From: Malachius bipustulatus | Lineage: Eukaryota; Arthropoda; Insecta; Coleoptera; Melyridae | Length of the DNA stretch: 64,000 nt | Reading direction: 5' to 3' | Assembly (NCBI GenBank): GCA_910589415.1 | Contig: OU342630.1 | Span: forward strand, 51,058,012 to 51,122,011 | Shown: one piece after another, positions 20,261 through 44,564 of the stretch | How positions within the stretch are numbered: position 1 is the stretch's first letter | Layout of the letters: every line of letters begins with the position of its first letter | Made by a program: the position numbers and the translations under genes | Notes under the pieces: model-generated | Database searches by the model: none | The model's input: only the letters and a program-made list of their open reading frames with translations | Told to the model about the DNA's origin: nothing

Positions 20261-22188
20261 CAAATACACTAGATAATAATACGTGCAGCTTCCACTGAAA
20301 ATTGTCACCGGAAGTTACTGTCGCCCAAGCGGCCCGATATCTAACTAGCGTTGATTTGAAATGTCAATTTAATTGAACGAAACGCCAATCTGACGTTTAC
20401 TTTGCTTATGATTTATAAACTTTTTGACTAGTAGTTTATTCTAATTCTAATTACAAAACGTTAAGTGTTGCGAATAATTGCGTAAAGCCAAGACAAGATA
20501 GATGTATTGGCCTATTGTCATCGGAAGACCTAAATAATTCCTTAATGGTTTTGGTTAAATATGTACAAACGAGAGATGCTTTGCTGAAAGAACTGTTTCA
20601 ACAGAACATTGCAGCAATGTAATGTGGCTCCGTCAATTCGAAATTTGAACCCTTTCTTGGATGAAAAAGTTTTGATTCGCGTTGGAGGAAGGTTGGTGAA
20701 TTCTGAATTTGATATGGATAAACATCATCCAATTCTGTTACCGGCAAAAAATTGGTTAACGAAATAAATATTTACAAGGGAACATTTGCGTTTGTTGCAT
20801 GCTGGTCCGCAACACCTATTAACATCTGTGCGAGAGCGATTTTGGGCAATTTCGGGAAGATATACGACAAAAAGAGTGGTTCACGAATGTGTGAGGTGTT
20901 TTCGGGTTGCGCAAAAAAAAAATAACTCCAATAATGGGTAATTTGCCAGCTTGCAGAATTAATCCTTCTTACCCTTTCCAAAATACTTGAGTGGACTATG
21001 ATGCTGGTCCAATGAATTTAAATAATACAAAGGGGCGTGGTTGTAGGGTTTCAAAGTCTTATATTTGCTTGTTTATATGTATGGTGACCAAAGCTGTTCA
21101 TATTGAACTTGTTACAGATTTGTCAACTGATGATTCGTTTATTTTGGCTTTAAAAAGATTTATTGCCCGTAAGGGAAATCCTTCCAATATGTATTCGGAC
21201 AACGGGACAAATTTTAGGGGAGCAAAAACCGAGTTAGACAAGTTGAGGGTTTTTGTATTAAAAAATAAAGACAGCATTGTTGAGGCTGACTGGCGAAGGA
21301 GTCGATTGGCACTTCATACCCCCCGGATCACCTCACTTCGGAGGACTTTTTTTCGTCTCTGACATTTGAAGAGATATGTATACGTTACTCGTACAAATTG
21401 AGGCCATCATGAATTCCAGACCTTTGTCACCCCTCTCTCACGATCCCAACAATTTAAATCCTCTTACTCCCGCTCACTTTTTGGTGGGAAGAAGACTATT
21501 GTCACTGCCAGATCCGTGTATTTTGAAGATTCCAGAGTATAGATTATCGTGCTTCCAAAAAGTTCAACAACTCCAACAATAGGTTTACTTAAAAACTGAC
21601 GACTTATTTATTTGCTTTGAAACCAGTCGAGTTATGCAAACGAAACTTGGTGGGTTATATTAAACAGTGGCACGCATACGGGTACCAATTAAAAATATTT
21701 CAACAAAAATGCAATAAGCATCGAAATAAACCACTAATTCACCTTATTATTACTGCTGCTGTATTGTATGTAGGTGTCACAAGCCTGACGTCATAGGCTG
21801 CGCACTGACATGTTTGTATAATAATTATATATACGTGTTTTCACGAGTATTACGCGTACCCATACACCTGTCTGTGCCAAAGTACTTATGAGTAAATACT
21901 TACGAGTACATTTTCTGAGTTTCGTACTCGAAAATCAATTTATTTACGAGCAGTACTCTTTCAAGTACTCCTGCCTAGCTCTGCGTCAACCCCAACATTA
22001 CCTGATACACCAAAAACTCTAGATAATTTTATTATGTCTGTGAAAATAATTTATATTACATCCGTGCTTTTCATATCCGGTGTCTTGTGTAGTTAGCGAT
22101 CGAGGCGTGTATGGCGCTCCTTTTCATACTTCACGTTTATTACATGTAAATGGCGGAGAGCTGCACGTATTATCATCTAATGTATTTG
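20261..22188 (+). mobile_element. TIR transposon copy A (1928 bp) carrying a BEL/Pao integrase fragment
   Basis: The ends are CAAATACACTAGATAATAAT on the left and the near-complement ATTATCATCTAATGTATTTG on the right, giving a TIR of about 30 bp. The 7-bp target duplication CTTAAAT flanks it at 20254-20260 and 22189-22195. The interior contains a decayed BEL/Pao integrase segment (20620-21580) followed by a non-coding part with many GTACT/AGTAC words. It is about 97% identical to copy B by eye. Confidence 0.85.
20620..21582 (+). pseudogene. BEL/Pao-type integrase fragment in copy A
   Basis: The same gene piece as in copy B but more decayed. An in-frame stop follows the ILLPAKNW segment, an A-run frameshift disrupts the zinc-binding region, and a stop lies just before the first catalytic Asp. 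The core VTKAVHIELVTDLSTDDSF and SDNGTNFRGAKTELD is intact (20991-21362). The piece after PHFGG is deleted and frameshifted, so the catalytic Glu is absent. The downstream frame LVQIEAIMNSRPLSPLSHDP (21376-21582) is the normal BEL continuation. Confidence 0.88.
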
Positions 22189-22436
22189 CTTAAATTCCAA
22201 AATTGGTATTGAATTTGTAATGTTCCATTAAGGGTGAAGTTAAAAAGTTTAAAAAATTCTGAGCCATGTTATCATTGAAGCAATTTTGGCAATAGTTTCC
22301 TTTCCTTATTATAAATTATAAAATATACTCACCAGCGGCTTTGTAAAAAATTAATGGTTATGGACCAGAACTAGCGAGACCGAAAAATCTGATTTTATGC
22401 CTCGTTTCAGTTTTCAGGCCGTGAATTGTGTGATAC
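22189..22436. other. Spacer between copies A and B, with both target duplications
   Basis: CTTAAAT at 22189-22195 is the right duplication of copy A. GTGATAC at 22430-22436 is the left duplication of copy B. About 230 bp of AT-rich DNA with no gene lies between, so the two copies are separate insertions and not a direct tandem duplication. Confidence 0.75.
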
Positions 22437-24357
22437 CAAATACACTAGATAATAATACGTGCAGCTTCCACTGAAAATTGTCACCGGAAGTTACTGTCGC
22501 CCAAGCGGCCCGATATCTAACTAGCGTTGATTTGAAATGTCAATTTAATTGAACGAAACGTCGACGTTTACTTTGCTTATGATTTATAAACTTTTTGACT
22601 AGTAGTTTATTCTAATTCTAATTACAAAACGTTAAGTGTTGCGAATAATTGCGTAAAGCCAATACAAGATAGATGTATTGGCCTATTGTCATCGGAAGAC
22701 CTAAATAATTCCTTAATGGTTTTGGTTAAATATGTACAAACGAGATGCTTTGCTGAAAGAACTGTTTCAACAGAACATTGCAGCAATGTAATGTGGCTCC
22801 GTCAATTCGAAATTTGAACCCTTTCTTGGATGAAAAAGTTTTGATTCGTGTTGGAGGAAGGTTGGTGAATTCTGAATTTGATATGGATAAACATCATCCA
22901 ATTCTGTTACCGGCAAAAAATTGGTTAACGAAATTAATATTTACAAGGGAACATTTGCGTTTGTTGCATGCTGGTCCGCAACACCTATTAGCATCTGTGC
23001 GAGAGCGATTTTGGGCAATTTTGGGAAGATATACGACAAAAAGAGTGGTTCACGAATGTGTGAGGTGTTTTCGTGTTGCGCCAAAAAAAATAACTCCAAT
23101 AATGGGTAATTTGCCAGCTTGCAGAATTAATCCTTCTTACCCTTTTCAAAATACTTGGGTGGACTATGCTGGTCCAATGAATTTAAATGATACGAAGGGG
23201 CGTGGTTGTAGGGTTTCAAAGTCTTATATTTGCTTGTTTATATGTATGGTGACCAAAGCTGTTCATATTGAACTTGTTACAGATTTGTCAACTGATGATT
23301 CGTTTATTTTGGCTTTAAAGAGATTTATTGCCCGTAGGGGAAATCCTTCCAATATGTATTCGGACAACGGGACAAATTTTAGGGGAGCAAAAACCGAGTT
23401 AGACAAGTTGAGGGTTTTTGTATTAAAAAATAAAGACAGCATTGTTGAGGCTGACTGGCGAAGGAGTCGATTGGCACTTCATACCCCCGGATCACCTCAC
23501 TTCGGAGGACTTTTTTTCGTCTCTGACATTTGAAGAGATATGTATACGTTACTCGTAAAAATTGAGGCCATCATGAATTAAAGACCTTTGTCATCCCTCT
23601 CTCACGATCCCAACAATTTAAATCGTCTTACTCCCGCTCACTTTTTGGTGGGAAGAAGACTATTGTCACTGCCAGATCCGTGTATTTTGAAGATTCCAGA
23701 GTCTAGATTATCGTGCTTCCAAAGAGTTCAACAACTCCAACAATAGGTTTACTTAAAAACTGACGACTTATTTATTTGCTTTGAAACCAGTCGAGTTATG
23801 CAAACGAAACTTGGTGGGTTAAACAGTGGCACGCATACGGGTACCAATTAAAAATATTTTAACAAAAATGCAATAAACATCGAAATAAACCACTAATTCA
23901 CCTTATTATTACTGCTGCTGTATTGTATGTAGGTGTCACAAGCCTGACGTCATAGGCTGCGCACTGACATGTTTGTATAATAATTATATATACGTGTTTT
24001 CACGAGTATTACGCGTACTCATACACCTGTCTGTGCCAAAGTACTTATGAGTAAATACTTACGAGTACATTTTCTGAGTTTCGTACTCGAATTTCAATTT
24101 ATTTACGAGTACTCTTTCAAGTAGGTACTCCTGCCTAGCTCTGCGCTCTGCGTCAACCCCAACATTACCTGATACACCAAAAACTCTAGATAATTTTATT
24201 ATGTCTGTGAAAATAATTTATATTACATCCGTGCTTTTCATATCCGGTGTCTTGTGTAGTTAGCGATCGAGGCGTGTAGATGGCGCTCCTTTTCATACTT
24301 CACGTTTATTACATGTAAATAGCGGAGAGCTGCACGTATTATCATCTAATGTATTTG
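22437..24357 (+). mobile_element. TIR transposon copy B (1921 bp) carrying a BEL/Pao integrase fragment
   Basis: Same termini as copy A. The flanks are GTGATAC at 22430-22436 and GTGATAC at 24358-24364, a perfect 7-bp duplication different from that of copy A. This shows independent transposition of a unit already containing the truncated integrase. The right duplication abuts the start of a third related element at 24365. Confidence 0.87.
22778..23533 (+). pseudogene. BEL/Pao-type integrase fragment in copy B
   Basis: An open frame of about 251 codons with no ATG at its start. It has the end of the connection region (NPFLDEKVLIRVGGRL), the HHCC zinc-binding module (EHLRLLHAG to HECVRC), the first catalytic Asp in WVDYAGPM and the second in YSDNGTNF. 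The frame ends shortly after PHFGG; in intact BEL/Pao integrases a W-E-A motif with the catalytic Glu follows. The continuation resumes at about 23550 in another frame with a stop. Gag, protease, RT and LTRs are absent, so it cannot act as a retrotransposon. Whether it is cargo or passenger is unknown. Confidence 0.9.
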
Positions 24358-25084: not shown

Positions 25085-26750
25085 AACGATCCCATAGAGA
25101 AAAACCTTCTTGCGCATCAATCGCAGAAATAGTGTATTTTTATGCGATTCAATTATGAATATTTTCACCGCTTTTTAAATTATTGGCTTTCTGAAATTTT
25201 CCATAGTCATGTCATGTTAGCGTAGTGCTTTAATGTGAAAAATTTTCTGTGATAATTTAATTTCATTTCGTTTCAACACGTGCCTTAGAATGGATTTTTA
25301 AATTTAAAAATCAAAAAAATTGGCAAAATTTCACAACTTTCAACTTTCAAAACAAAAATTTCAACTTGAAAAATACTATTTTTTACACTACCTTTAATAA
25401 ATTCGCAAAAAACTGAAAGGAGAGTTTTGAAAACCGAAAGTTTGAAATTTTAGAGGAATAAACATCATTTAAAAATATTCGAATATATCTCCGCCATTTT
25501 TATATTTGCTTCTTGAAATTTTTGAAGGTTAACTGCTATTAGTATAGTTGTCTACTATCAAAATTTCCGTTCTATTCCTTCAAAAATAAGCTCATGAATG
25601 TTTATAGAAATGTAGACATTTTTACCCTTTTCCTACCCACGCCTCTGGCTTATTAATAGAAATGATGCAAATTGTATTGCATTAGCTCAAATTTCAAATA
25701 AGTTTATTCCAATCTTGTTAATTTTGTTTAAAAGTTTTTGATCTTGCCTATTTAGGGGTTCAAAATCTAGCCATTTTCCAAAAATTGAAAAGGCCGCCAT
25801 TTTGGAATGTCTTTACCTATTTTACTCAAATACAGTACCAGACGACTACTTGAGGGTATCTTACTACCAAAAAAATTTCAGCGCTCTAGATTGAAAACTT
25901 CGACCAGAAACCGTGCCTCACGGACGGTTTTTTTTCTGAAATTCGGAGGGACATCCTGTAGAAGTAACACAACTCTAGGAAAATGTTTTTTACGAAAATC
26001 AAACGTCAGCCCTAAGGTTTATAAGAGTAAAAAATTTCGTTCATTAATCTTGAAAGATGAAGCTACAGGAGCGTTTTTAAAAATTTAGAGAAATTAATTT
26101 AAAAAAAAACATCATGTAAAAAAAATCGAATATCTCCGCCATTTTTCTTATTTACTTTTTGAAATTCTCAAGGATTGAAGTCTATTAGTATAGTTGTCTA
26201 CTGTAAAAATTTCAGTTTAATTACTTCAAAAATGTGCTCATAAATTGTTGGAGAAATTTAGCCATTTTTACCCTTTTCCTACCCACGCCACTGGCTTATT
26301 AATAGAAAAAATGCAAATTTTGTTGCATGAAATTAAATTTCAAGTCATTTACTTCCAATATTGTGAATTTGATATAAAACTCTTTTTCTATCTAGCTTAT
26401 ACAGGGGTTCAAAAAATAGTCCTTTTTCCAAAAATTAAAATGGCCGCCATTTTGAAACGGCTCGATCGATTTTGCTCAAGTGCAATACCAGACCACTCCT
26501 TATGGATATCTTACTTCCACAAAAATTTCAGTCTCCTAGATTGAAAACTGCGACCTGAAATGAGGTGACAAAAACGGGATATGGGGAATTTTGAAAGGAC
26601 ACCCTGTAGAAGTAACGCGACTTTAGGAATTTTTTTCAACGAAAATCTAACGTCGTTCCAAGGTTTTACAAGGATCCAAAATTTCATTCACTAATCTTGA
26701 AAGATAAAGCTACAGGAGCGTTTTGAAAATCGAAATTTCGCGATTTTGGA
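25085..26750 (+). repeat. Dispersed repeat with internal 0.6-kb duplication
   Basis: The segment 25085-26090 matches 43300-44100, with shared words such as CTTCTTGCGCAT, TATCTCCGCCATTTTT and GTAGAAGTAAC. The part 25485-26090 is repeated again in direct orientation at 26115-26740. The continuation after this repeat is found at 39670-39810, beyond the insertion. The frames here are not genes. Confidence 0.75.
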
Positions 26751-27676
26751 GAAATATATAAATATATAAATATAGAGATGTTTTTGTATCAAGGTGAGAT
26801 CTTTTGGTTACATTTTGTAGACAAGCTGAGATCCATTTTTACAAGACGAGATCCTTTTCGGATCTCGACTTGTATCTATGTGTATATCAACTTTTTTCAC
26901 ATAGGAGGGGTCAGGGGGGGGTGGTGGCAAATTTTCGTCTGGATCTCATTTTGACCATTTTTTATCAATTTTTATACAGAAATAGTTCAACTGTTCACGC
27001 TTAAGAGGGCGCTAGAGTTGTGGTCGTGTATATTATTATTTCTGTACAACTCGAGATCCGGTAAATGTGGCACTACTGCAAAGCAGATCAGGTTACATTT
27101 GGCACTTAAATTGATGGTTATCTCGACTGTAGAATAAAATTCGTATTCCTAACTCTTGCCTTGCCGCTTTGAGATAGCTCCCTCACGGAAATGCATTAAA
27201 AAACAATTGAACATGGGTCCCTAATAAATTTTCTAAAGAAACATCAAAGTTAATTAGCAAATCCATATTATTATTGCCGTACCTATTTGTGTTAAATTAA
27301 CTGCATTTTTATCAATAAGATAATTGAAGATTGAATAATTGAAGATTCAAATGAAATCCAATGATGTAGGTACATACAGTGAGCGCCAAAAGTAAGAAAT
27401 AAATTCGATAAAACGGAAAACATTGTTTTTTTTATGAAATAAAAAACAGGCCGATTTTTCTTTTAAGCTGTTCAACTTTTGAAATAATATTCGGGTATAC
27501 AAGCTGATACGTGAAAAAATTGTGACGTCATCGGCATTTTTTTTTTTAAATAGAAAACCCTTACTTTTTATTCCATTTTTTGATACTTTATTCTATTGCC
27601 AATACGGTGATGTAATCAATTTGTAACCTTAAATGAGCAAATTTTTGAGAAAATGAACTTAACTTAGACAGATTTA

Positions 27677-27913
27677 GGGCCGGTTGTTCGTACGTCAGTT
27701 AAAAATTTTGAGATAACTACTGATTTTAAATTGCAAATTTTGAAAATACGGCGAATATAATTAATGATCTTGTATTTTTAATCAGTAATTAACTCTTCTT
27801 AAAGCGAGCAGAATTCATTTTCAGAAATATCAGACCAATGGTTTGATAATACAGGGCATTTTAAAATCAGTAGTTATCTCAAAATTTTTAACTGACGTAC
27901 GAACAACCGACCC
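27677..27913. mobile_element. 237-bp PIF/Harbinger-type MITE
   Basis: Terminal inverted repeats GGGCCGGTTGTTCGTACGTC and its near-complement, extending for about 50 bp. A TTA target duplication lies on both sides (27674-27676 and 27914-27916). TWA duplications are typical of PIF/Harbinger. Confidence 0.82.
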
Positions 27914-28697
27914 TTAATAGATTAATTTAATTTAATTTAACAGATTTAATCCAATAGACTTACAGTAGATATTATAAAGGCTCATTAGGTTAACGTACAG
28001 ATTTCGGGGGCCGTTTCTAGAAAATATGTATCGACTCTGGGTGGAAAATATAGCAATTCAGTGATTCTTGGCCGGACAGGGATTACAAAAATGTTAATAA
28101 AAGTAATTTGACGTCGATATTCACTTTGAAAACGGTCACAAAAATCTGCCCGTTAACTTAATTGGCCTTTATAATACCCACTGTTAATTTAATAGACAGA
28201 TCTTATAAAATTGCCATGGAAACTGTTATTTTTGTTTGATATGGTTTTAATTTTTTTCGTTAATGTTCCGATTTTCACATCACTAACAAAAAGTGCACAC
28301 TCTCGACTTCACAAGCTGTTTTCTCAGAAATTTCCTTATATTTAAGGTTATAAATTGATTACATTACCATAATAACATTGTACTTATGTTCTAAACTCAT
28401 TAAATTTAATAGTTTTATCCGAATCACCCGGAAAATGCGTCTTCTTATCTGCATCGCGCTTCTCTTTATCAATTTTTTGCTCGAAATTGAGCGTTCAATA
28501 AAACATTTATTATATATGTACAGGGTGCGGCGCGAGAACCTTAGGGCATTTTTATATGGAGAAGTCCAAGGAGTAGAAGTCTAAAAATTTGTACGTGTAT
28601 AATTTTGGTTTTGACGAGCTGTAAAATATTCACAACCCCTCACCATTTCCGGTTATACCGAAGTAGCCATCAACTATCTTATTTTAAACGGGACAAG

Positions 28698-29193
28698 TTG
28701 TATATTATTACATTTTCAGATTGCGTGAAAAAATATAATAAAAATGGTGTTTGTAGTTCAAAATTGGAACGAGTGGTTTATGAGTTATAAACAAATGAAA
28801 ATCGCAATTTTTCATTTTCAAAGCAGCTTAGATCGAAAACGGGTCAAGATAGATGAAAACGGCTTACATGTCCCTATCTTAACTTTTCACGTAGTATCCT
28901 ATGGTGCTGATGAAATTTGTATACAAAGTGATGAAAAATCAGCGTTTTCAAAAAGAAAATTAATAAAAAATATTTTTTTTTTTAGGTACTCCAGCATAAT
29001 AGTATACAAAAAGTTAGGATAGGGACATGTAAGCCGTTTTCCGATATCTTGACCCGTTTTCAAGCTAAGCTGCTTTGAAATGGAAAATTGCAATTTTAAT
29101 TTGTTTATAACTCATTAATTGGTCGTTACAAATTTGAACTGTAAACATCATTTTTATTACTGTTTTTCAGGCAATCTGAAAATGTAATAATAT
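28698..29193. mobile_element. Foldback element near TACAGGGTG motifs
   Basis: Arms of about 180-200 bp (28698-28898 and 29011-29193) share words such as ATTACATTTTCAG and CTTACATGTCCCTATC with their complements. A TACAGGGTG motif lies at the right end (29193) and another at 28519. The interior word TTTATAACTCATTAATTGGT is also seen in the element at 62.2 kb. Confidence 0.75.
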
Positions 29194-29267
29194 ACAGGGT
29201 GTACCATTAAAAAAAAAAGAAAAATATGGCAACTTCCGGTGTAACCGGAAGGGCTGACCAAGGGCTG

Positions 29268-29830
29268 ACAAAAGTTACAGGCCTTTGAATCTCAGATTTG
29301 TGATATTTTTTCACGAGTAAGAGCTTCGCAAAATATTTTTTTCTCCGTCACCGGTTGACATTGGGGACTCTAGTTTTGTTTTTCCATTATAGTTATGATT
29401 AGTGAACGAAATGACGTATTTAAAATGCAAGAAGTTTGTTCAATTTTTTAAAATATTCAGTGTTTTTGTCCGATTAATCACACAGTTTCTGCAAAGTTCC
29501 GACTTTGAACACCTTTAATTTTTTTTCACGATATCGATTTCAGTTTTTTTGTTACCATCTGATAAAATGAAGTTTTGTGAACATTTTATTCCGCATAACA
29601 TATAGTCGCGTTTCAAAAATAAACTTTCTAGAGCCGTTGATATGAAATCCTGAAGTTGACCAGATATGTTTAGCATAGAACGGACAGAGTGCGTGTTATA
29701 GCGCGGCGACGGCTGTTGAACAAGGAACGGCTGAGAATTAGATTGTTACTGTTATGTAACCTATTCAATAATAATTTAGGGACGTTTATTTAATGTAATA
29801 TTGTTTAAATAAGGATTTGATATTTTGGAA
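29268..29830 (+). repeat. Repeat alpha, copy 1 (direct)
   Basis: A block of about 560 bp starting with GCTGACAAAAGTTACAG and ending near AATTTAGGGACGTTTATTTA. It recurs in direct orientation at 30404-30970 and inverted at 32280-32880. Confidence 0.85.
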
Positions 29831-30263
29831 ATATTCATATTTTCAATTACATAAGTACATAGGTTAAAAAACTATATTTTATACATAATAGGTATACTTA
29901 CATAATCTCAATAATATCATCATTATATGCATGTGAGATACTTACTCAGGCTTACGCTCATTAATACAGCAACTCTTTTACTTCTTCTTCCTCGGAAAAA
30001 TTGCTGTTTAGTTTGTCTTCAAAAATATTTTCAGTGATTGCAAAAATCTGATACAGCTGATGATTTAGACAACATTTCCACATCTAGGCATAATCTTTAA
30101 ATTGACTGCATTTGAAACTATTTTTCTAGTATTCTCACCAGTGCCTGTGCTAATAGAAATGAGTTTCTTCTTTTTTTTCTGCCATCTTTGTTGCAAATGA
30201 AGCACATCTTTCTAATATCAAAATTTATTTTGATTCGTCCCTTATTTGCAGTGCGCTCATTAT

Positions 30264-33004
30264 AGTGGAGCGGAAAGAGCCCGCTATCTCGCTTATTTCA
30301 GGTAGAAAAATTTTTCGGAGTAGAAAGATATGGGACCGGTACCATCATATTAAGGGATCTTTGGGGCACTAGAATCTCCTTTTACGACAAGCTCCCTTGG
30401 TGCTGACAAAAGTTACAGCCCTTTGAATCTCAGATTTGTGATTTTTTTTTCACGAGTAAAAGCTTCGCAAAGTATTTTTTTTCTCCGTCACCGGTTGACA
30501 TTGGGGACTCTAGTTTTGTTTTTCCTTTATAGTTATGATCAGTGAACGAAATGACGTATTTGAAATGCAAGAAGTTTGTTCAATTTTCAAAATATTCAGT
30601 GTTTTTGACCGATTAAACACACAATTTCTGCAAAGTTCCGACTTTGAACACCTTTAAATTTTTTTTTCACGATATCGATTTCAGTTTTTTTGTTACCATC
30701 TGATAAAATGAAGCTTAGTGAACATTTTATTTCGTATAACATGTAGTCGCGTTTCAAAAATAAACTTTCTAGAGCCGTTTATATGAAACCCTGAAGTTGA
30801 ACAGATATGTTTAGCATAGAACGGAGTGCGAGTTATAGCGCGGCGACGGCTGTTGAACAAGGAACGGCTGAGGATAAGATTGTTACTGCGAGTGTTACTG
30901 TTATGTTACCTATTCAATAATAATTTAGGGACGTTTATTTATTGTAATATTGTTTAAATAAGGCTTTGTTATTTATTAAATATTTTAACACGCTTGAAAT
31001 TTATTCACCTAAAGGGCAATTATTGCCCTTTATAGAAAGCAAGGTATGGTCTCAGTCTTAACATGATGGTACCGGTCCCATATCTTTCTACTCCGAAAAA
31101 TTTTTTGTGCATATTTTCAGCCTCTTTCCGCTCCACTATTATTTTGGGATTTGCTTTGTATCTGCCGTTGGTATTCGGTCTTTTGGTAACTAGTATAACG
31201 CTTGTAACATTCGTGATGATACTTATAATCATACTTCATTGATTCCAAAACTTTTTTGTGAGGTTCGAGTCTTGTCCAAAGATTGTCATGTCTTTTTTCT
31301 GACGCGTTAAGAATGGCTGAGATTCCTCTACTCGTGGGTCGTGGGCGTCTGAATAACTGTTCTTGACAAATCATCGAGACTTCCGTCACAAATTATGCAA
31401 TGATTCAAATTCATGTTACTTTTTCTCCTGTTGAGGAGGAATAAATATTGAATTATTGGTCATAATATACATACAATATCGGGGTGTATATTTTTCATTA
31501 TTATAAAATCTGAACTTGAAATGAAAGAAAGAAAAAAAAATAATTAATGAAAAATAAATTTTTTAATAAAACTTTGACCTCTTTTCTAAAATTATCTTTC
31601 TTGAAAATTATGCAAATAACGACACATGCTTATTTGAGTATTTTCTACTAAAAAATAAAAGGAATCGCCATTCTAATTTAAAGTCACCACTTTGTTACAC
31701 CCTCTATACCTAATACAATAACTGTGTGTAAGTTGTAAAATTTCTCTAGCAAATTCGACTGTATTAGACTAATTATTAGAAAATATATTCAAAATCCTTC
31801 CTTACCTGAATTTCACGTTGGCATCAAAATTAAACATTGTTGAGTGTTGATACTAACACTATCAATGTTGATTAAAATTAATACTAATGACACAATTATT
31901 AAACATATGATATTAAACACCGCCTATATAGATAAGAAATAAACCTCGCACGCGTGTGTTCGGCTTACACCCTTAAACTGAAATTATTTTGTATATTATC
32001 GCATTTCACCAGGGCTTTAAACTACAGCCACACGATGATATTTATTTATTGATGATGAATAAAACATTAATGTTTTAAAAATATTTATTTATTTTTTACC
32101 AGTTCATCACAACCCCAAGAAATTGCAGTTGAAGGAAATACCTACTAAGGTACAATAATTGTACTTCATTTCTAGGTAAATATGTGTAACCGCGTGTAGA
32201 TAAGATATTATACCTTAAATACCTTGCTTCCTATTGCCCTTAGGTAGGTATATTAACCAATTGAAAATATGAATATTTTCAATGAATTTCAAGCATGTTA
32301 AAATATTTAATAAATAACAAAGCCTTATTTAAACAATATTACATTAAATAAACGTCCCTAAATTATTATTGAATAGGTACCTACATAACAGTAACAATCT
32401 TATTCGCAGCCGTTCCTTGTTCAACAGCCGTCGCCGCTCTATAACTCGCACTCCGTCCGTTCTATGCTAAACATATCTAGTCAACTTCAGGGTTTCATAT
32501 CAACGGCTCTAGAAAGTTTATTTTTCAAACGCGACTATATGTTATGTGAAATGAAATATTCGCAAAACTTCATTTTTATCAGATAGTAACAAAAAAACTG
32601 AAATCGATATCGTGAAAAAAAAATTAAAGGTGTTCAAAGTCGGAACTTTACAGAAATTGTGTGATTAATCGGACAAAAACACTGAATATTTTGAAAATTG
32701 AACCAACTTCTTGCATTTTAAGTACGTCATCTCGTTCACTAATCATAACTATAATGGAAAAACAAAACTAGAGTCCCCAATGTCAACTGGTGACGGAGAA
32801 AAAAAAAATTTGCGAAGCATTTACTCGTGAAAAAAATCACAAATCTGATATTCAAAGGGCTGTAACTTTTGTCAGCACCAAGGGAGCTTGTCGTAAAACG
32901 AGATTCTAGTGCCCCAAAGATCCCTTAATATGATGGTACCGGTCCCATATCTTTCTACTCCGAAAAATTTTTTGTGCATATTTTCAGCCTCTTTCCGCTC
33001 CACT
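30264..33004. repeat. 2.7-kb palindrome with about 700-bp arms around a broken gene
   Basis: The left arm 30264-30970 is block beta (starting AGTGGAGCGGAAAGAG) plus alpha copy 2. The right arm 32280-33004 is the inverted alpha copy 3 plus beta. A third, shorter beta (31062-31138, minus) is the 3' end of the broken gene at 31020-31414. The spacer also holds AT-rich sequence with no other gene. Arms this long with a gene inside resemble a DNA transposon with long inverted repeats, but no catalytic domain is visible. Confidence 0.7.
31020..31414 (-). pseudogene. Broken gene with CxxC ... HxxxC motif, repeat-associated
   Basis: From ATG at 31414 the minus strand reads MNLNHCIICDGSLDD. A frameshift then moves to the frame with SAILNASEKRHDNLWTRLEP and YKYHHECYKRYTSYQ. 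A second shift leads to a segment VERKEAENMHKKFFGVERYG that is the same as block beta. The pattern C-x2-C, then H-x3-C followed by YT, is that of uncharacterised arthropod proteins that occur in large repeat-linked families. A zinc-binding role is inference. At least three genomic copies of the 3' part exist within 3 kb, and two of them read on through RDLWGTRISFYDK to a stop. Confidence 0.5.
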
Positions 33005-34500
33005 AATAGGTACATACCTACCGCTCTAGTGGAGCGAAATTCGTTATAAAAGTCGCTCCGTTATCGATTTTTTTTGACGTATAACCAGGTCAGATCTAAT
33101 AAGTTTTGTTCATTGCATAATTTTGCATTCAAAACGGCTCTTTACAACCTTTTTGGGTAGGTCGGGACTTTTATATTTGAAAAAACCATAAAAATTTATG
33201 ATTTTTAAAAATTGTACTTTTGAACATTTACATGAATATATCTTAAAAAGTAATCAAGATATAAAAATGATTTTCTCATTAAATTAAAGCAGACAAATGG
33301 GCGCTTCTAATCGTGTATCTTACTGCCCTCAAGTATATAGTATAGCTGATTTGCAAAAATAATACAAACGGTGCATGTTGCAAAACGTGTATTGATATTT
33401 TCACTAAGCGACAAACTTTTTTAGTTATGAAAATTTTTGTACACATGAAGTGAACAAAATGAAGCCAAGATATAGTAGAAGTTTTTGTATAAAAATTATT
33501 CTTTGTAGCGATTGCCGTTTGGTAGCTATGACCTTTTTTTCAAGTGATGTCGCGCCAATATCGTGCGCTAGCCCTTACATAGAGAGCGTCGAGTCAAATG
33601 CAAGGCCTACATTAATCCAAATATAGGAACAAGGTATAATATAAGCTATAAAACATATTTTGTTTCAGTCTTATACACAAGCTATATAGTCCCACTTTAC
33701 CTGTCAGGTAAACATTTAAGGTATTACCTTCAATTATTGTAGGAAATAATTATTGACCTGGACACGTGTCCTTGGACCAGGTTTCTGGTCAGTATGACCA
33801 GCAAATACAGCAAATACACGTGAAGTTCTCAAACGTTCCCAAAAAAGCATACTAAATTTTTTTAATATTTGGGCTTCAAGAACTAATTAAATTTAAAGTA
33901 GAACGTAGGTATTATTATTGTAGGTATAATAATAATAATTGTACGTTAATGTTAATAATTATTGTTATTGGACATCAAAATGAATATGTAATCCAAATTA
34001 TGTTTATATAAATTATATAAACAAACTATATAACTAAATGTTTAAATGTTTTTTCTTCATCTAAAGTCAATATATCGATCTGTAATCAAAAGTATAAAAT
34101 ATCAACAGGTCGTTTTGAAAATTGTAGAAGAACAAAAATAAAATAAAAATTCTGATTTCATTTTGAAGCTAAATTTTATTTCAATAACATTTAGTTTATA
34201 ATAATTATTGTTTGCGTAGCGCACCCTGAAAAGTAACTTATAAAAATAAGAGGTAGGTACATGAATTATCTAGAAAGAGCTTGTGCATATTATGGAATTT
34301 TATTATGTATTTTTATAAATTTTGAAAACTTTGTAGGTTTCTTTAATCACCTACCAACCCACCAAACTTATAAATTACAGTAGCTAACTACAAAGAATTA
34401 CGTGAGCAACTATTATAGTTATCACCAAATTATATTTAATTAAGTATGATCTTGTGGTCAGTATGAGGAAGTCTGCAGTAAGCAAGGTAGGTAGTACATG
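33005..34500. other. Non-coding AT-rich stretch inside the 12.9-kb insertion
   Basis: No exon, MITE boundary or RNA gene recognised. Short AT palindromes such as AATAATAATAATTGTACG near 33930 are present. Confidence 0.4.
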
Positions 34501-34503
34501 CAC

Positions 34504-34914
34504 CTATTTAATGGTAACTGTATACCGAATAATAATAAACTTCGAAAAAATATGTGAAATAAAACAAAAAATACGAACTAAGTACATCAATACCTGAATT
34601 GATATAAATAGCCAATAAAAAATATGGGATGGGACGTCTTTATAAGGAGATACTTTTTTCGACTGTGTATTATAATTCATCAAGGCAAACAACTTTTTCA
34701 AATAACTTTTCTTAATTAAAAAACTCAAAAAGAAACGAGATACAGCCTTTAGAAGGTAAAAAAAATTAAAGTCCAGACCTACCATAGTAAATTCAACTAC
34801 TGACTTTGCCAAACTGATTTTGCTCAACAAAAAAAAAATTGAATACGTAACAAAACCAAAATAACAGGAAATAAAAATGAAATAAAATGAAAATTTCCAG
34901 CCTTTGTTTTTCAT
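34504..34914 (-). pseudogene. Hydrophobic 136-codon frame, chemoreceptor-like fragment
   Basis: The minus strand encodes a Phe/Leu/Ile-rich protein with about three likely membrane segments (GFVTYSIFFLLSK, FYWLFISIQVLMYL and others). A charged loop LIKKSYLKKLFALMNYNT lies between them. Layout and loop resemble the region around membrane segments 1-3 of insect odorant receptors. The assignment is weak because low-complexity AT-rich DNA can give similar frames. An inverted, more decayed copy lies immediately beside it at 34945-35200, which argues that this was once a real sequence unit. Confidence 0.3.
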
Positions 34915-34944
34915 TTAAATTACCTAAACATTACCTACTTCAGT

Positions 34945-35200
34945 TATTTTCGTTTGCTTCCTGTTAGTTTTCGTTTTGTTTCCCAGGTAACCTTATGTGT
35001 TGGAAGTGCTTTTCTGATTGTTGATTGAAATCAGTTTTCAGTTTAGTTACATTAATTTATCACAGGGCTGAACTTTAATTTTTTTTTTAACTTACAAAGG
35101 CTGTAATCTCATTTATTTTTTACTTTTTTAGGAAAACTTATTTGAAAAAGTTATTTGCCTTGATCAATTTTATAAACAGTCAAAAAAAGCATATCCTTAA
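34945..35200 (+). pseudogene. Inverted copy of the chemoreceptor-like fragment
   Basis: On the plus strand, AACTTTAATTTTTTTTTTAA, AAAGGCTGTAATCTC and TTGAAAAAGTTATTTGCCTT match the coding strand of the 34504-34914 frame. The frame KTYLKKLFALINF survives near 35135, after which stops follow. The two copies stand head to head, about 30 bp apart. Confidence 0.5.
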
Positions 35201-36340
35201 TAAAAAAACTCCCAGTGGAATTAGGTTCTGAAAATGTTTAACTGGTTAGTTTTGGACCATGCAATTACACATATTTTTATCCTTTTAGAGTTTTATTCAA
35301 CAACGTGTGTTCAATGATTTTTTTGTAAAAAAGCTATGAGTGTTGAAGACAAAACAGTTGTACAAAAACCAAGAATATCTACAAGGTATGTTGTCATTAA
35401 TAATTATATTACCTACTTACTTGCTTGTGGGGAAAAACGGCAAGCTGAATGCGGAAAGCGAATTATGTTAAAAAAAGAAAGCATTTTAAGTGGAAAGTTT
35501 TTACCTAACTATATATCATAGGGAATGCTATGATATATAAAATAAAAAGCTATAAAAGTAATAAAAATATTTCTTCTCAGCCCGATGATACTACAAAAAT
35601 ACTAGAGAGGCAAGCGACTGGCTATGCGTCCGTGCGTAATAAGCTTAGCGTTCAGCCATTGCGCGAATTAGATCACAATTAAAAATTCATAATTCAATAA
35701 TTACCAAACATGCGACAAAAATTTATCTTTTAAAAACTTTCTTAATACTTTGGCTCCAATTTCTTCGCTGCATGTGTAAAGAATTTTTTTTAAATAAAAA
35801 AGTTTCTCGCTGACTAAAAATATCAATACATTTTTGCGTAAAGTTTCAATTACCTTTTGATTTCACAATCAAATATAAAAGTCCTAAAAACAAGATTACC
35901 TACCGCCAAAAGAAGCGCTGATGTATGCACTTCAATTAAAAAAAAATAGATTCGTCGATAGCTCAATTAGTTTTAAAGATATGACAATTTACATTTTTAA
36001 AAAGCAATTTTTCCGAATTACTAATTTTTCAATTTTTTCGAATTTAAAAAGTGGTGACCTACGGAAAAAGGTCGTAAAAGTCCATTTCTTGTTGGAAGTA
36101 GTCAAATACACCATACGTATAAGTGGCAGCTGGTTATACGCCGAAAAAAAAACAACACATTTTTCGTCTCATTTCGCTCCACTACACGTATATTAACTAA
36201 CGTGTCTGCGCACTAACCAGTTCTGGCCAAGCTCTCGCCTTACTATAAAATTTATACCGGACCATTATTATTGTACTTCCTTATTTCAAGAGTTACCGAT
36301 TAGGTTAAATTAGCAAAGTTGTGCAAAATTTTGCTAATAC
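35201..36340. other. Non-coding stretch inside the 12.9-kb insertion
   Basis: Short frames only (61 and 91 codons) with no recognisable domain. Nothing supported. Confidence 0.4.
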
Positions 36341-36349
36341 TTTTTAAGA

Positions 36350-36850
36350 ATTTGAAACAAAATTTAGGATAACTTCAGTCGTTGCTGAAATATCCTGAAA
36401 AAAACTGAAAACTCGAGATTTATTTATTTTAAAAATATCTCTATAATATCTAGAATATCATTTTTATCATCGAAAGTAAGTTAACAATTTTTTGTAGGTT
36501 CATAAAAGTCGTTAAGAGCTGGGTGAGGCGAAAGAAAGATTCGGTGGAAATATTTTCTTCTTTTCTTAAAACAAAAAGAAATAAAATTTTCATAAATAAA
36601 GTATTTAAATTTATTTTATTTTTTAAATATTTAGTAAATTGATTTTTTTATATCGAATGACATTCAAAAACAGTACGGCGATCATAAGAAAACCAAAAGT
36701 TGACTATGAAAACTCTAGGATCTAGTAGGATTTGAAAGTTCTTAAATCAGTCAGAGCTCATGACGATTTATGAACCTAAAAAAATTAATTAATTCAATAT
36801 CGAAAAAGATATTATTTCTAAAATAAATAAATCGATTTTTTGTTTTTTTC
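36350..36850. mobile_element. Foldback element, GATCTAGTAGG family
   Basis: A palindrome with words shared with 41202-42204 and 61101-62098: AAATATCCTGAAAAAAACTG on the left, CTATGAAAACTCTAGGATCT on the right. It is diverged and has no coding capacity. A half copy of the same family is at 37790-38010. Confidence 0.65.
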
Positions 36851-36989
36851 TGCATATTCCAACAATATACACAGCTGCCCTAATTTTTTTTGCAAGATTC
36901 TGGAATAAGTATTCTGTACAACTTCGACAATTTAGCCAATCTGTAACTCTTAAAATAACAAAGTTTTCAATGCAACAATAGTAGACTAA

Positions 36990-37165
36990 TATCACCTATA
37001 CATTAGTATGGAAAATGTGTACAGTAACTGACAGTACTAAAAAAGCAATTTCGGAGAAGCGGCAAGCGGAAAAATTTTCTCGCAACGAAAGTTTCTGCTT
37101 ACTGCTTCTCTGAAATTACTTTGTTGGAAATGTCAGTTACTGCACACAATTTCCGTACCGATGTA
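36990..37165. mobile_element. Small palindrome with CAGTTACTG arms
   Basis: The left part ACAGTAACTGACAGTAC and TTCGGAGAAGCGG face the right part TTCTCTGAAATTAC and TGTCAGTTACTG. An outer pair CTATACATTAGTATGG / CCGTACCGATGTATAG extends it. It is MITE-like with no ORF. Confidence 0.6.
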
Positions 37166-37284
37166 TAGTCCTAATCATTATAAATGATTAGAACAAAATA
37201 CAAAGTTTTTTTAAGCAGAGATTTTTTGCTCTCAAAAGTTTTTTTTTTACAAATCAAAAATAAAGACTTTTCATTAGAAAATTG

Positions 37285-37610
37285 TATATATTGAAACAAT
37301 TGCCGACGAAGTATATTATTATTTAGATTATTATAGGTTTTAGATTCCGACTTGATAGTTTTAAAGTTATTAATCGAAAGTTTCAACGTTTCGGGACTGA
37401 TTAGTCCCTTGATCATATTTCATATAATTATGTATTTTATATTTGAATCTTTATCTTACTGTATAATTTTTTTATTCGTACCAACTTAATAAATGTGATC
37501 TACGCTACGGACTAATCAGTCCCAAAACGTTGAAACTTTTGATTAATAACTTAAAACTATCAAGCCAGAATCTAAAACCTATAATAATCTAAATAATAAT
37601 AAAGATTTTT
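37285..37610. mobile_element. Palindrome with arms of about 120 bp
   Basis: Left ATTATTATTTAGATTATTAT and GACTGATTAGTCCC face right GGGACTGATTAG-type complement and AATAATCTAAATAATAAT. No ORF; probably a foldback MITE. Confidence 0.7.
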
Positions 37611-38010
37611 CTTTCTCATAATATTCTGATAATATTCTCATAATATTCTCATAATATTATGATGTACTGGTATACACACAGTGTCCAGTTTAAATGACAG
37701 TACCTACATGGGGGTCTTAACAACGGTAAGATATACCTATACGAAATCGGTTAGAGATAAAACTGCACAATTTTCTGCTCAGTAAGAAACTGAAAAAATT
37801 TAGAATATTTTCATTGGATTCTGAAAAATCCTGGAAAAACTGAAAATTAGAGATTTCTTATTTTAGCCATATCTTTTTTATTATTGAGAATGTATTACCT
37901 AATTATTTTTTGTTGGTTTACATAAGCCGTCATAAGCTACCGATTTGACATTTCAAAAATTTTCAAAGTCGACTAGATCCCAGAGTTTTCAAAGTCAACT
38001 TTTTTCTTAA

Positions 38011-39365
38011 GGCCGCCATATTATTTTTTTATGTCGTTTGGTCAACAAAAAACGTGAAAACCTAAACTTTAACAAAACAAAACAACTTCTTTCACCGAAT
38101 TACGTGAAAATATAAAGTCATATTACTGGTCTTAGTTGACTCAACGATGAAAATTGTATACGCAGCAGAATGTCATTTGATAATCTAAAATCAAATTATT
38201 GTTTCCGAATTTTTTTCAAGCATGCACAGTTACTGAAATAATGAACTTAGTAGTTCATTAGAACAAGTAGAATCTCGCTGTTCTACGCCGTACGATATGG
38301 GGGCAAGTTGTGTATTTTTGTGCTGATTAGTAATCTGAAAAAAAATCTTGGCTCTGATCATTAGTTGTCAAAATATTGGAAAAATATACGAAATTACTTT
38401 TTTTTATCTAACGACGAATCAAGCTAGCCGTTTCTAATCGAAACATTAGGACACTTTTTTACAATTTTTTTTTGTAATCACTTTTAGATGACGAAAAAAC
38501 AAGTCGAGGTGCGAGAAGGATCTCGTCTTTTAAAAATGGATCTCAACTTATTTACAAAATATCATCAAAAGATTTCGCCGCGTGATACGCAAACATATCA
38601 GCTCTAGTTGCTTATATCTATATTTTCAGTGGACTGAGAAGTAAGTAATATGCGAGGTACCTAATATGAAAAAAAAATTATATAAAAAACAATATGGCTA
38701 TAAAAAAAATTAAAGAAGAAAATGAAAATCGTAGAATCGACTTTGAAAAATCTTGAAATGTCATATGGATTTTTACTAATGGTCATTACTAATTTTCTGT
38801 AATAAAAAAAGTTTTGTCTAAATAAAATAAGAAATCTCGAATTTCATATTTTAGCATCTGGCTTAAATTCCATTTCAGATTACAAATTGGGACAAAAATA
38901 CGCTAATTTCACCCTTAACCTACTTTCTTTAATTTCCTAATAAAAAAACCGAGATCCCAAACATTTTTTAAATTTTTTATAATAATTTTTTTATTTTTTT
39001 CTTATAATGAACTTTTTATCTTTTATAATACAATAAAGTTTCTGATGCTCGACAAAGATTTCATAAGAACTAGTAAGTATCGACACCCACAATTATTATT
39101 AATCGATTTTTATACTTCGGTACTTATAAATTTCTCGTTCGCACACAATACGCAATAAGAGTAAAGAAAGATTCTGGTCAATCTGAAATCCTGAAGGGCT
39201 GGCAGGTGTTTATTTAATAATTTTATGTGACTTTACATCCGGTCTGCGTGTAACGATCCTGTAAATCACTACTATTCACCCCAACATACCCAAACCGACC
39301 TGACAACAATGTCGGATCTGATCTTATAGATAAATTATAAACATATACATATCAAACATCGACAT
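38011..39365. other. Right interior of the 12.9-kb insertion
   Basis: AT-rich and non-coding. At 38500-38590 there is an inverted match to the left end at 26795-26875 (AAGGATCTCGTCTTTTAAAAA against TTTTTACAAGACGAGATCC). Confidence 0.5.
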
Positions 39366-39594
39366 ATACAACTTCAGATCTCGGCTTGATTAGTTTATAT
39401 CACCGGATCTCGTTTAGTCTAAGTTTTTTGAAGAAAAATTTAAATTTAAAAATTGTTTCCCCTCTCTTGAATTTTATATTGCTAATATAATTTATTAACT
39501 ATTTGTAAAAAATATACTTCAAAAAGTCTGCTCCTTCTGGTGGATCTCGGGTTGTCCTCGATTTAAAACGGATCTCAACTTGGTACAAAAACGT

Positions 39595-39656
39595 GTATAT
39601 ATATATATAAATATATAAATATATATATAAATATATATATAAATATATATATATAT
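39595..39656 (+). repeat. TA / TATAAA microsatellite
   Basis: Long alternating TA tracts with periodic AAA at the right edge of the 12.9-kb insertion. Overlapping minus-strand frames rich in Ile and Tyr are translations of it. Confidence 0.95.
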
Positions 39657-39669
39657 CGTGGGCAGGTGA

Positions 39670-39810
39670 ATTTTGGAAAACCACTTTTTCGTGATCTGGG
39701 GGTCATGATCGGTGGACATTTGATGAGTTTAGGTGATTTTCGAAAAGTGATGTCGTCCTCAATAGTGTATTTTTTTATTAAAAAATACACTAATATCGGG
39801 TCCGGGGTCT
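39670..39810 (+). repeat. Right-hand continuation of the split repeat
   Basis: Shares CTTTTTCGTGATCTGGGGGT, GATCGGTGGACATTTGATG and TTATTAAAAAATACAC with 44105-44215, the undisrupted copy. It is the part of the 25.1-kb repeat displaced by the insertion. Confidence 0.8.
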
Positions 39811-41201: not shown

Positions 41202-42204
41202 ATACAGGGTGCACCATGTATCCTTCTCTATATTGCTATCTCCTAACGCTAACAGATACAGGGTCGGTTAAACAAATCCAAAGGAGCGCAATTTTGTGGT
41301 CATCTTGATTCCGTCGAGACATACAAGATATCTGTGACCGTTCCTGAAATATCCTGAAAAAACTGAAAAATCGAGATTTCTTATTTTGCCATATCTTTTT
41401 TATTATTGTAGATTAATGAATAATTTTTTGTGGGCTTACATAAGTCAGCAAGAGCTACCCATCTGATATTTCAAAAATTTTCAAAGCCGACTAGATCCCA
41501 GAATTTTCATAGCCAACTTTCGTTTTTCTTATGGCCACCATAGTGTTTTTTATGTTGTTAGGTATTAAAAAAAAATCATAAAAACAAAAAATTGTTAAAC
41601 TTCAAAAAATAAATAAAAAAAATTTTATTCTCCTTTTTTCTTTACAAAAAATACACATTTTTAGACCGAATTTCATAGATAAATTAAAAAACCATAAGGC
41701 AAGCACTATTTCGGCGTATTTTACAAATGTTGACGTTTTTCGACGATTTTTTATTAGGTTTTTCTTTGAAATATTAAGAATAAAAATTAAATTTTTTTTT
41801 TGAAGTTTATTAATTTTTGGTTTCCATTATTTTTTTCATATCGAACGACATAAAAAAATTATATGGCGGCCATAAGAAAAACGAAAGTTGACTGTGAAAA
41901 CTCTTGGATCTAGTAGGCCTTGAAAATTTTTGAACTGACAGATGGATAGCTCTTAACGGCTTATGTAAGCCTACAAAAAATTATTTATTAATTTCCAATA
42001 ATAAAAAAGATATGAGGAAAATAAGAAATCTCGATTTTTCAGTTTTTTCAGGATATTTCAGGAACGGTCACAGATATCTTGCATGTTTTGACGAATTCGA
42101 GATGGCCACAAAACTGCGCATCTTTTCTCTAATTTAACCGACCCTGTATCTCTTAGCGTTCAGGAGATAGCAATATAGAGAAGGATACATGGTGCACCCG
42201 TATA
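41202..42204. mobile_element. 1.0-kb foldback element ending in TACAGGGTGCACC
   Basis: The left end TACAGGGTGCACCATGTATC and the right end GATACATGGTGCACCCGTA are complementary. Arms of about 350 bp follow, with the second-layer words CAGGGTCGGTTAA and TTAACCGACCCTG. The interior words AAATATCCTGAAAAAACTGA and GACTAGATCCCAGA are shared with 61101-62098 and others. No transposase. Confidence 0.85.
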
Positions 42205-43299: not shown

Positions 43300-44215
43300 A
43301 TAACCTTCTTGCGCATTAATCGCATAAATATTTACTTCTGAAATTTTCCATAGTCAGGTCATATTAGCGTAGTGGTTTACTGTGAAAATTCCCTTTTAAT
43401 TTCGTTTGAAAACGTGCCATCAAATGAATTTTTAACAAAACAAAAAATTTTGCATAATTTGACAATTTTGTCCCTTTTTTATGCAGTGGTTAACTTTACT
43501 TAAAAACTGCTATTTTTACACTACCTTTAATAAAGTCTTAAAAAGTTACAGGGGAGTTTTTAAAATCGAAAATTGGAAATTTACTAATTTTTGATCGAAT
43601 AAACATCATGTAAAAAAAACTCGAATATCTCCGCCATTTTTGTTATTTGCTTTTTGAAATTTTTCAGATTTAAAGGTAATAGTGTAGCTGTCTACTCTAA
43701 AAATTTCAGGTCAATTTCTTCAAAATTGTGCTAGAAAATTTAGAAATTTAGCCATTTTACCCGTTTCCCTCCCACGCCACTGTCTTCTTAATAGGAATAA
43801 TGCGAATTTTATTGCGTTAACTCAAATTTCAAATAACTTTCTTACAATCTTGTTAATTTGGTTTAAAAAATTTTTTTTGTGAATATCTACTCCCAGAAAT
43901 TTCAGCCCTCTAGATTGAAAACTGCGACCTGAAAAAATACCATAAGAACCGGATTTCTGGAATTTTTAAAGGACACCCTCTAGAAGGAACGCGACTTTTG
44001 GAAATTTTTTCTAAATATCTAACGTCATTCCAATGTTTTACATGGATCGTTCACTAATCTTGAAAAATAAAGCTACAAGAGCATTTTTAATTTGGAAAAA
44101 TATAACTTTTTCATGATCTGGGGGTTAGGATCGGTGGACATTTGATGGAGTTTGGGTGATGTTTTATTATTTAGTGTATTTTTTATTAAAAAATACACAA
44201 ATATAAGTTCCATAA
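43300..44215 (+). repeat. Undisrupted copy of the 25.1-kb repeat
   Basis: Collinear with 25085-26090 and then, without a break, with 39670-39810. The point that matches the 12.9-kb insertion is AATTTGGA at 44089-44096, followed by CTTTTTCATGATCTGGGGGT. Confidence 0.8.
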
Positions 44216-44538: not shown

Positions 44539-44564
44539 GAACACCTGAGAACCTCAAAACACAG

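What the first reader, a model, noticed from the sequence alone, without database searches (positions are those of the whole stretch)
26751..39669. A 12.9-kb insertion with inverted GAGATCC-rich ends and an unfilled paralogous site
The repeat at 25085-26750 continues only at 39670, and the same repeat at 43300-44215 is unbroken at that point. The interrupting block is flanked by ATTTTGGA on both sides. Its subterminal sequences are inverted copies, with many GAGATCC motifs pointing inward. No known transposase is visible. It may be a large non-autonomous DNA element, or an undescribed family with chemoreceptor-like and zinc-motif passengers.
Basis: partly seen in the sequence, partly recalled or inferred. 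Interest (0 to 1): 0.8.

Follow-up and report, generated by a model that had tools for sequence, protein, structure and literature searches.

The report
Giant coding-less transposon in TA microsatellites
The block is a young, roughly 12.6-kb jumping DNA element with no recognisable enzyme of its own that sits, in dozens of similar copies, almost always inside runs of TATATA; which enzyme moves it is still unknown.

Summary
The insertion is real and the family mobile. Each end was scored at 40 places in the same 544-Mb genome, the window's own included (lists capped). 38 of 40 left and right ends pair in the same orientation, 12.5-25.5 kb apart, on 12 contigs. The copies read share a ~12.6-kb core; extra length is nested insertions. 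Eleven copies differ by 0-0.8% over 1.9 kb, one 15.4-kb copy by 1.5-1.9%.

ATTTTGGA is part of a host repeat on both sides of a (TA)n tract; 15 uninterrupted copies exist. In 37 of 38 copies the ends, TA|GAGATGTTTTTGTA... and ...TACAAAAACGTG|TA, abut AT-only runs of at least 11 bp left and 15 bp right. Flanks give no support for a duplication above 4 bp.

The "chemoreceptor" and "zinc" passengers are not supported. No listed MULE, PolB or hAT match lies in these intervals (PolB_2 and hAT capped). Longer relatives with left-type ends on both sides exist; their insides were not read.

Verdict: a large non-autonomous TIR DNA transposon specialised on TA microsatellites. Engine unidentified.

The parts
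25085..26754 (+). host repeat, 5' part (the target; a dispersed repeat with an internal (TA)n tract)
   Evidence: recurs beside other element copies; uninterrupted copies elsewhere
26755..26774 (+). left TA-rich tract of the target site
26775..39595 (+). the element: large non-autonomous TIR DNA transposon (this copy includes a nested 237-bp MITE)
   Evidence: ends recur together at 38 places including this one; boundaries from the junction table
26780..26835 (+). left terminal inverted repeat (GTTTTTGTATCAAGGTGAGATC...)
   Evidence: aligns with the right end, score 40 vs maximum 29 in 300 shuffles
26790..27058 (.). left subterminal cluster of CAAGNNGAGATC motifs
   Evidence: 6 motif sites with at most 1 mismatch
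26841..26873 (+). inverted motif pair (hairpin-capable) ACAAGACGAGATCC / GGATCTCGACTTGT
   Evidence: DNA fold of 26781-26900, z = -5.9
27677..27913 (.). nested 237-bp palindromic MITE carried by a subset of copies
   Evidence: of the 11 other copies read, present in 3 (C7:45.7M, C1:29.7M, C1:78.2M) and not seen in 8
31117..31392 (-). 91-aa 'zinc-motif' ORF; shared by the copies, no sign of coding constraint
34504..34914 (-). 136-aa 'chemoreceptor-like' ORF; most likely a chance ORF in a dispersed non-coding repeat
38499..38599 (-). older inverted copy of the left end, about 1 kb inside the right end
   Evidence: local alignment score 111 vs shuffled maximum 29; 82-83% identity to left-type ends
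39369..39595 (-). right subterminal motif cluster and right terminal inverted repeat (aligned part 39541-39592)
39596..39656 (+). right TA-rich tract of the target site (61-bp AT-only run)
39657..39800 (+). host repeat, 3' part (starting CGTGGGCAGGTGAATTTTGG...); end approximate

Best explanation
It is one copy of a young family (about 40 copies) of large non-autonomous terminal-inverted-repeat DNA transposons, core about 12.6 kb, that inserts into (TA)n microsatellites. A transposase supplied from elsewhere would recognise the conserved end GTTTTTGTAYCAAGNTGAGATC and the subterminal CAAGNNGAGATCC clusters, cut the element out, and join it into a TA tract with a short TA/TATA duplication or none. 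Shown: shared paired ends, near-identity, TA-tract insertion sites, uninterrupted host sites, no large ORF. Inferred: trans-mobilisation, motif recognition and the cut-and-paste chemistry. Not identified: the transposase.
For: Left and right ends each matched at 40 scored places, 97-100% and 93-100% identical (40 scored of 102 and 106 candidates). 38 of 40 pair in the same orientation on 12 contigs; 18 of 38 are 12.4-13.0 kb and 9 are 15-16 kb. Flanks differ between copies while the termini are nearly fixed. 37 of 38 copies have AT-only runs of at least 11 bp left and 15 bp right; 28 of 38 have the host repeat within 200 bp on at least one side, in both orientations. 15 host-repeat copies are uninterrupted at that point, 0 in the control pattern. 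Substitutions of 0-0.79% among 11 copies over 1.9 kb. 11 GAGATCC against 0.10 expected. Extra length in the four longer copies read is nested inserts, among them a 6.3-kb insert with an 1808-aa ORF, a 2.2-kb insert with a 492-aa ORF (they look like BEL/Pao and Tc1; labels recalled, no family search) and CAGGG-type MITE-like inserts.
Against: No transposase was found, so mobilisation in trans is inferred. The duplication length cannot be measured inside TA repeats: agreement of flanks at 6, 8 or 10 bp is no better than shuffled pairs (28, 26, 24 of 38). One copy (C7:3340868) has non-TA bases at its ends: GAGA before the left end and TATACAGGG after the right. In 6 of 38 copies the host repeat was found on one side only with nothing recognised on the other, so some sites are rearranged or joined different repeats through TA tracts. 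Longer related elements were not readable inside, so the family's full-length form is unknown.
Confidence: 0.82

Rival explanations
1. The engine is a Mutator-like (MULE) transposase, as for the plant MULEs that target TA microsatellites (MuTAnT, Micron, SaTar).
For: The closest described behaviour: elements between TA tracts and, for SaTar, no 10-bp duplication when in microsatellites and arrays of elements (PMC4486113 part 1 of 4; PMC5907723 passages). The genome has MULE domains, 31 matches, six of them in ORFs over 600 aa. Two of these elements sit head to tail in one TA tract (C2:38.78M).
Against: None of the 31 MULE matches (51 of 51 candidates scored) lies inside an element or a known interval of the longer relatives (compared by eye). 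A 9-bp duplication fits 0 of 38 copies, and 8 or 10 bp is contradicted in 12 and 14 of 38. In the passages read, complete arthropod MULEs are under 10 kb.
Confidence: 0.35
2. The engine is a transposase that duplicates the dinucleotide TA (Tc1/mariner, ISL2EU or Mirage type; families and their duplications recalled).
For: TA|element|TA fits 37 of 38 and TATA 36 of 38 copies. A 2.2-kb nested insert with a 492-aa ORF looks Tc1-like (label recalled).
Against: Agreement at 2 and 4 bp is equally expected by chance in TA tracts (shuffled means 37.0 and 36.0 of 38). Strict preference for long TA tracts and 12-kb size are unusual for these families (recalled). No such transposase was searched with these ends.
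Confidence: 0.25
3. Copies spread as excised circles that recombine by homology into TA tracts, as the authors speculate for SaTar elements, so no transposase defines the insertion site.
For: No duplication signal above chance; short filler between the TA tract and the conserved GTTTTTG differs between end types; elements stack in a shared tract; 6 of 38 copies have the host repeat on one side only.
Against: Copies of one type have nearly the same terminal bases. Homologous recombination in a TA tract needs no inverted ends, yet the inverted ends and motif clusters are conserved.
Confidence: 0.15
4. A rolling-circle (Helitron or Helentron) element inserted between A and T.
For: Insertion inside TATA with no measurable duplication; a hairpin near the left end.
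Against: Terminal inverted repeats at both ends and elements with left-type ends on both sides; no TC...CTRR termini (recalled criterion; ends); hairpin about 65-100 bp from the end. Rep/helicase was not searched.
Confidence: 0.06
5. A Polinton or other DNA-virus-derived element, or its satellite.
For: The genome is rich in PolB_2 matches (150 listed); the longer relatives, about 19-22 kb, have long inverted ends.
Against: No listed PolB_2 match (76 of 187 candidates scored) and no PolB match (11 of 11 scored) lies in any element or known interval of a longer relative (compared by eye). A 6-bp duplication, typical of Polintons (recalled), is contradicted in 10 of 38 copies.
Confidence: 0.05
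6. Assembly artefact or segmental duplication.
For: Microsatellite junctions are hard to assemble.
Against: 38 paired copies in both orientations on 12 contigs, with different flanks.
Confidence: 0.01

Closest known systems
MuTAnT / AutoMuTAnT (Medicago MULEs targeting TA microsatellites; PMC4486113, part 1 of 4 read)
   Same: Insertion inside (TA)n tracts, inverted termini, many transposase-less copies.
   Different: 90% of MuTAnTs are 200-300 bp, with a 4.9-kb putative autonomous partner carrying a mudrA-like gene. Here the core is 12.6 kb, the termini differ, and no MULE gene was found with these ends.
SaTar elements of guayule and rice, including Micron (PMC5907723, passages read)
   Same: Microsatellite-targeted, without a duplication in microsatellites, and forming arrays.
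   Different: Plant MULE derivatives; 11 of 15 guayule families also have members outside microsatellites with 10-bp duplications, and no such member was seen among the 38 copies here.
Arthropod MULEs (PMC13359780, passages read)
   Same: Inverted-repeat DNA transposons in arthropods; TIRs from tens to over 1000 bp.
   Different: The survey's complete MULEs are at most 9,972 bp and encode a transposase of over 300 aa; this element has no frame over 136 aa.
Giant eukaryotic transposons such as Polintons and Teratorn (PMC6431247, passages read)
   Same: Large DNA transposons.
   Different: Those carry large gene sets; this core has no frame over 136 aa.

Membership tests
Non-autonomous TIR DNA transposon | Same outer boundaries at many unrelated sites | tested here: met
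   38 of 40 ends pair; flanks differ
Non-autonomous TIR DNA transposon | Terminal inverted repeats | tested here: met
   imperfect, about 56 columns, score 40 vs shuffled maximum 29
Non-autonomous TIR DNA transposon | Fixed-length target-site duplication | tested here: inconclusive
   TA tracts hide it; nothing above 4 bp supported
Non-autonomous TIR DNA transposon | Autonomous partner with the same ends and a transposase | tested here: inconclusive
   none found; longer relatives with similar ends exist but could not be read inside
TA-microsatellite-targeting transposons | Insertion inside (TA)n tracts | tested here: met
   37 of 38 copies
MULE (Mutator-like) | MULE-type DDE transposase associated with the ends | tested here: not met
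   31 matches, 51 of 51 candidates scored, none inside these elements; the known intervals of longer relatives hold none either
MULE (Mutator-like) | 8-11 bp duplication | tested here: inconclusive
   9 bp in 0 of 38, 8 bp in 26 and 10 bp in 24 of 38, no better than shuffled; microsatellite slippage could mask it
hAT | 8-bp duplication and hAT dimerisation domain with these ends | tested here: inconclusive
   8 bp contradicted in 12 of 38 copies; no listed hAT match in the intervals, but 150 of 417 candidates scored
Polinton/Maverick | PolB and integrase genes, 6-bp duplication | tested here: inconclusive
   no listed PolB match in the intervals (76 of 187 scored, 11 of 11 scored); 6 bp contradicted in 10 of 38; integrase not searched
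Tc1/mariner | TA duplication and a DDE transposase with these ends | not tested
   TA compatible in 37 of 38 copies, as chance also gives; transposase not searched
Helitron/Helentron | TC...CTRR ends and terminal 3' hairpin (recalled criteria) | tested here: not met
   termini and hairpin position differ; Rep/helicase not searched

The most novel reading that the evidence does not exclude
The 12.6-kb elements are satellites of an undescribed class of giant animal transposons. Its full members would be the related elements with 99%-identical left-type ends on both sides: about 19-22 kb apart in three cases, or roughly 44-45 kb if a C7 cluster is read as Russian dolls. This class would use a recombinase that targets TA microsatellites and would be unrelated to MULEs.
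Probability: 0.2. Interest if true: 0.78.

Novelty: new variant of a known kind. Interest (0 to 1): 0.52.

Why it matters
In what I read, transposons that target TA microsatellites are mainly short plant MULE derivatives; one of those papers also cites microsatellite-associated elements in moths. A recently amplified 12.6-kb element without a recognisable gene and with the same habit, in what appears to be an animal genome (I-set Ig exon; organism not identified), would show that large size does not bar trans-mobilisation. TA tracts would serve it as a safe landing site. The conserved ends and motif clusters make its transposase a directly testable question, and some copies carry younger transposons inside, so each insertion can move a large block of mixed DNA.

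Tried and rejected
Rejected: 8-bp duplication ATTTTGGA. Rejected: chemoreceptor passenger. Doubtful: the zinc ORF as a working gene. It is present in 39 element copies (38 with a full-length open frame, one split; 51 of 51 candidates scored; 6 further, weaker rows at 5 other loci). Six distinct single-residue changes and no silent change were seen in the same-length copies read; one copy with a 9-bp insertion was not scored. The protein database gave no homologue, though it compares only proteins of similar length. Rejected within the limits of the scored lists: PolB-carrying virus or Polinton as the content of these intervals. No RNA family in the window. No PDB relative of the 136-aa ORF. 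The empty-site search with DNA found nothing, with no candidate at all, probably because host-repeat words are too common for that tool; the pattern search gave the answer. Paper searches listed, by title and start of abstract, no animal transposon of this size that targets TA microsatellites; this covers only the held library and these terms. Correction: an earlier count said the 136-aa ORF is frameshifted in 7 of 12 copies; the recount is 4 of 10 broken.

Considered, unresolved: presence/absence of a longer relative at one site. Contig C12 reads flank-(TA)n-longer element-(TA)n-this element; C7:38.43M has the same roughly 40-bp flank next to this element directly. That suggests an insertion polymorphism, but only about 40 bp of flank were compared and the C7 element has no right end in the lists.
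Full report
Observation. The window lies in a 544-Mb assembly of 52 contigs. The host repeat at 25085-26754 stops at a TA-rich tract and resumes at 39657 after another. Between the tracts is a 12,821-bp element, 26775-39595, starting GAGATGTTTTTGTATCAAGGTGAGATC and ending GGATCTCAACTTGGTACAAAAACGTG.

Copies. The first 400 bp gave 41 matches and the last 430 bp 69 matches, the weaker ones of the latter short TA-tract pieces; both lists are capped at 40 scored of 102 and 106 candidates. I took 40 left and 40 right ends; one partial left match and the 29 short right-side matches were dropped. 38 pair in the same orientation at 12.5-25.5 kb on 12 contigs: 18 are 12.4-13.0 kb, 6 are 13-15, 9 are 15-16, 3 are 16-18 and 2 are over 20 kb. 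Two lefts and two rights stay single; the pattern search adds a left end 41.8 kb from one of the single rights (C6:5.51M) and a further pair of ends 49.8 kb apart at C7:3.09-3.14M. A 91-aa ORF inside marks 39 copies, with all 51 candidates scored. The family thus counts about 40 to 43 members in this assembly.

Reading the copies. Ten further copies plus one of the 15.4-kb class were fetched at length; of the 25.5-kb copy at C2:25.8M only the outer 10 kb on each side were fetched. All align to the core where read. Extra length in the four longer ones is nested inserts: three of 883, 1001 and 984 bp starting CAGGG or AGGG in the 15.4-kb copy; a 3.5-kb insert and a 6.3-kb insert with an 1808-aa ORF at C2:25.8M; a 2.2-kb insert with a 492-aa ORF and one of about 3 kb at C14:33.4M; one of about 4.2 kb at C13:18.9M (BEL/Pao and Tc1 labels are my recollection).

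Age. Over 1.9 kb of the right end, 11 copies including the window's differ by 0-0.79%, and the one 15.4-kb copy read differs from them by 1.53-1.90%. The window copy is about 99.9% identical over 9-kb stretches to those at C7:45.7M, C1:29.7M and C1:78.2M. These four share the 237-bp nested MITE.

Target. In 37 of 38 copies the element is bounded by AT-only runs of at least 11 bp (left) and 15 bp (right); medians over all 38 are 23 and 35. The exception, C7:3340868, has (TA)n then GAGA on the left and TATACAGGG on the right. Within 200 bp, 28 of 38 have the host repeat on at least one side: 19 on both sides in one orientation, 3 with another element end on the other side, and 6 with nothing recognised on the other side. 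10 of 38 have it on neither. Uninterrupted host repeats occur 15 times, with none for the reversed pattern. So the ATTTTGGA on both sides is native to the repeat. Flank agreement is 37, 36, 28, 26, 0 and 24 of 38 at 2, 4, 6, 8, 9 and 10 bp, against shuffled means 37.0, 36.0, 27.4, 25.6, 0 and 23.9. No duplication length stands out, and 6 bp or more is contradicted in at least 10 copies unless the microsatellite slipped later. At C2:38.78M two copies sit head to tail in one TA tract.

Ends. Left and right align over about 56 columns, score 40 against a maximum of 29 in 300 shuffles. The terminal 400 + 1150 bp hold 11 exact GAGATCC/GGATCTC against 0.10 expected. An older inverted copy of the left end lies at 38499-38599. 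I infer that an ancestor may have had left-type ends on both sides and that the present right end was recruited later, 1 kb further out. A 33-nt inverted motif pair sits at 26841-26873.

Relatives. The end pattern GTTTTTGTANCAAGNTGAGATC has 100 listed matches (probably a display cap), reversed control 0. A query spanning a left-type end and its junction to host-repeat sequence found 14 ends at 99-100% identity that keep this junction: 11 on C7 (1.17-1.76 Mb), two on C12, one on C6 (40 of 1276 candidates scored). Three pairs of these bound stretches of about 19.0 kb (C7:1.32M), 21.7 kb (C7:1.74M) and 21.1 kb (C12). A C7 cluster runs + + + - - - and can be read as three nested elements, of which the outer two would be about 44-45 kb, or as an array of units of about 19-24 kb. 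I saw only their ends.

Coding content. Eight ORFs of the element have no Pfam match over its cut-off. Searches of the whole genome for MULE (51 of 51 candidates scored), PolB_2 (76 of 187), hAT dimer (150 of 417) and PolB (11 of 11) listed no match inside any of these elements or the known intervals of the longer relatives; I compared the coordinate lists by eye. Tc1/mariner, piggyBac, integrase and Rep/helicase were not searched.

Interpretation. A young non-autonomous TIR transposon family that targets TA microsatellites is the best reading. It works like the plant TA-targeting MULEs, but membership in MULE is not shown: no MULE gene was found with these ends, and the duplication is unmeasurable. 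The engine may be a MULE, a TA-duplicating transposase, or something in the unread longer relatives.

Setting. An exon-like frame with Ig I-set domains at 11353-12429 and a second frame at 44549-44956 (no Pfam match; Ig-like by eye, recalled) lie on either side in the same orientation. The window copy may therefore sit in a large intron of an Ig-repeat gene; this is inference.

Noticed in passing
genome G000, e.g. C10:88631 (+) and 93902 (-); C1:10079543 (+) and 10084458 (-); C13:21386475 (+) and 21391197 (-): Polinton-type PolB matches often occur as two long open frames, mostly about 1120 aa, in convergent orientation roughly 3.5-7.5 kb apart, about 14 pairs by eye in the listed rows: palindromic PolB elements.
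   Followed up: no
G000 C7:1171241-1761862: A 0.6-Mb stretch with 11 nearly identical ends of the longer relatives, partly in a symmetric + + + - - - order: nested or palindromic array.
   Followed up: partly
L097, C12:34980-35000: Reads N just inside a longer relative; assembly gap or withheld, not pursued.
   Followed up: no
L098, C1:25168020-25168180: About 45-50 bp of a right-type end joined directly to the 3' part of the host repeat, next to TATA: a further, different relative.
   Followed up: partly
window 20261-24278: Tandem pair of a 2.17-kb unit, 92-100% identical, with weak integrase-core and H2C2 matches below Pfam cut-offs: probably a retroelement fragment duplicated in place.
   Followed up: no
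window 41245-42168 and 61138-62061: Two copies of a foldback MITE-like repeat (inverted arms up to 95% complementary); pieces of the same repeat lie inside the element near 36601 and 37894.
   Followed up: no
window 4995-8009: 1004-aa open frame that reads like a non-LTR retrotransposon polyprotein (recalled; not searched).
   Followed up: no
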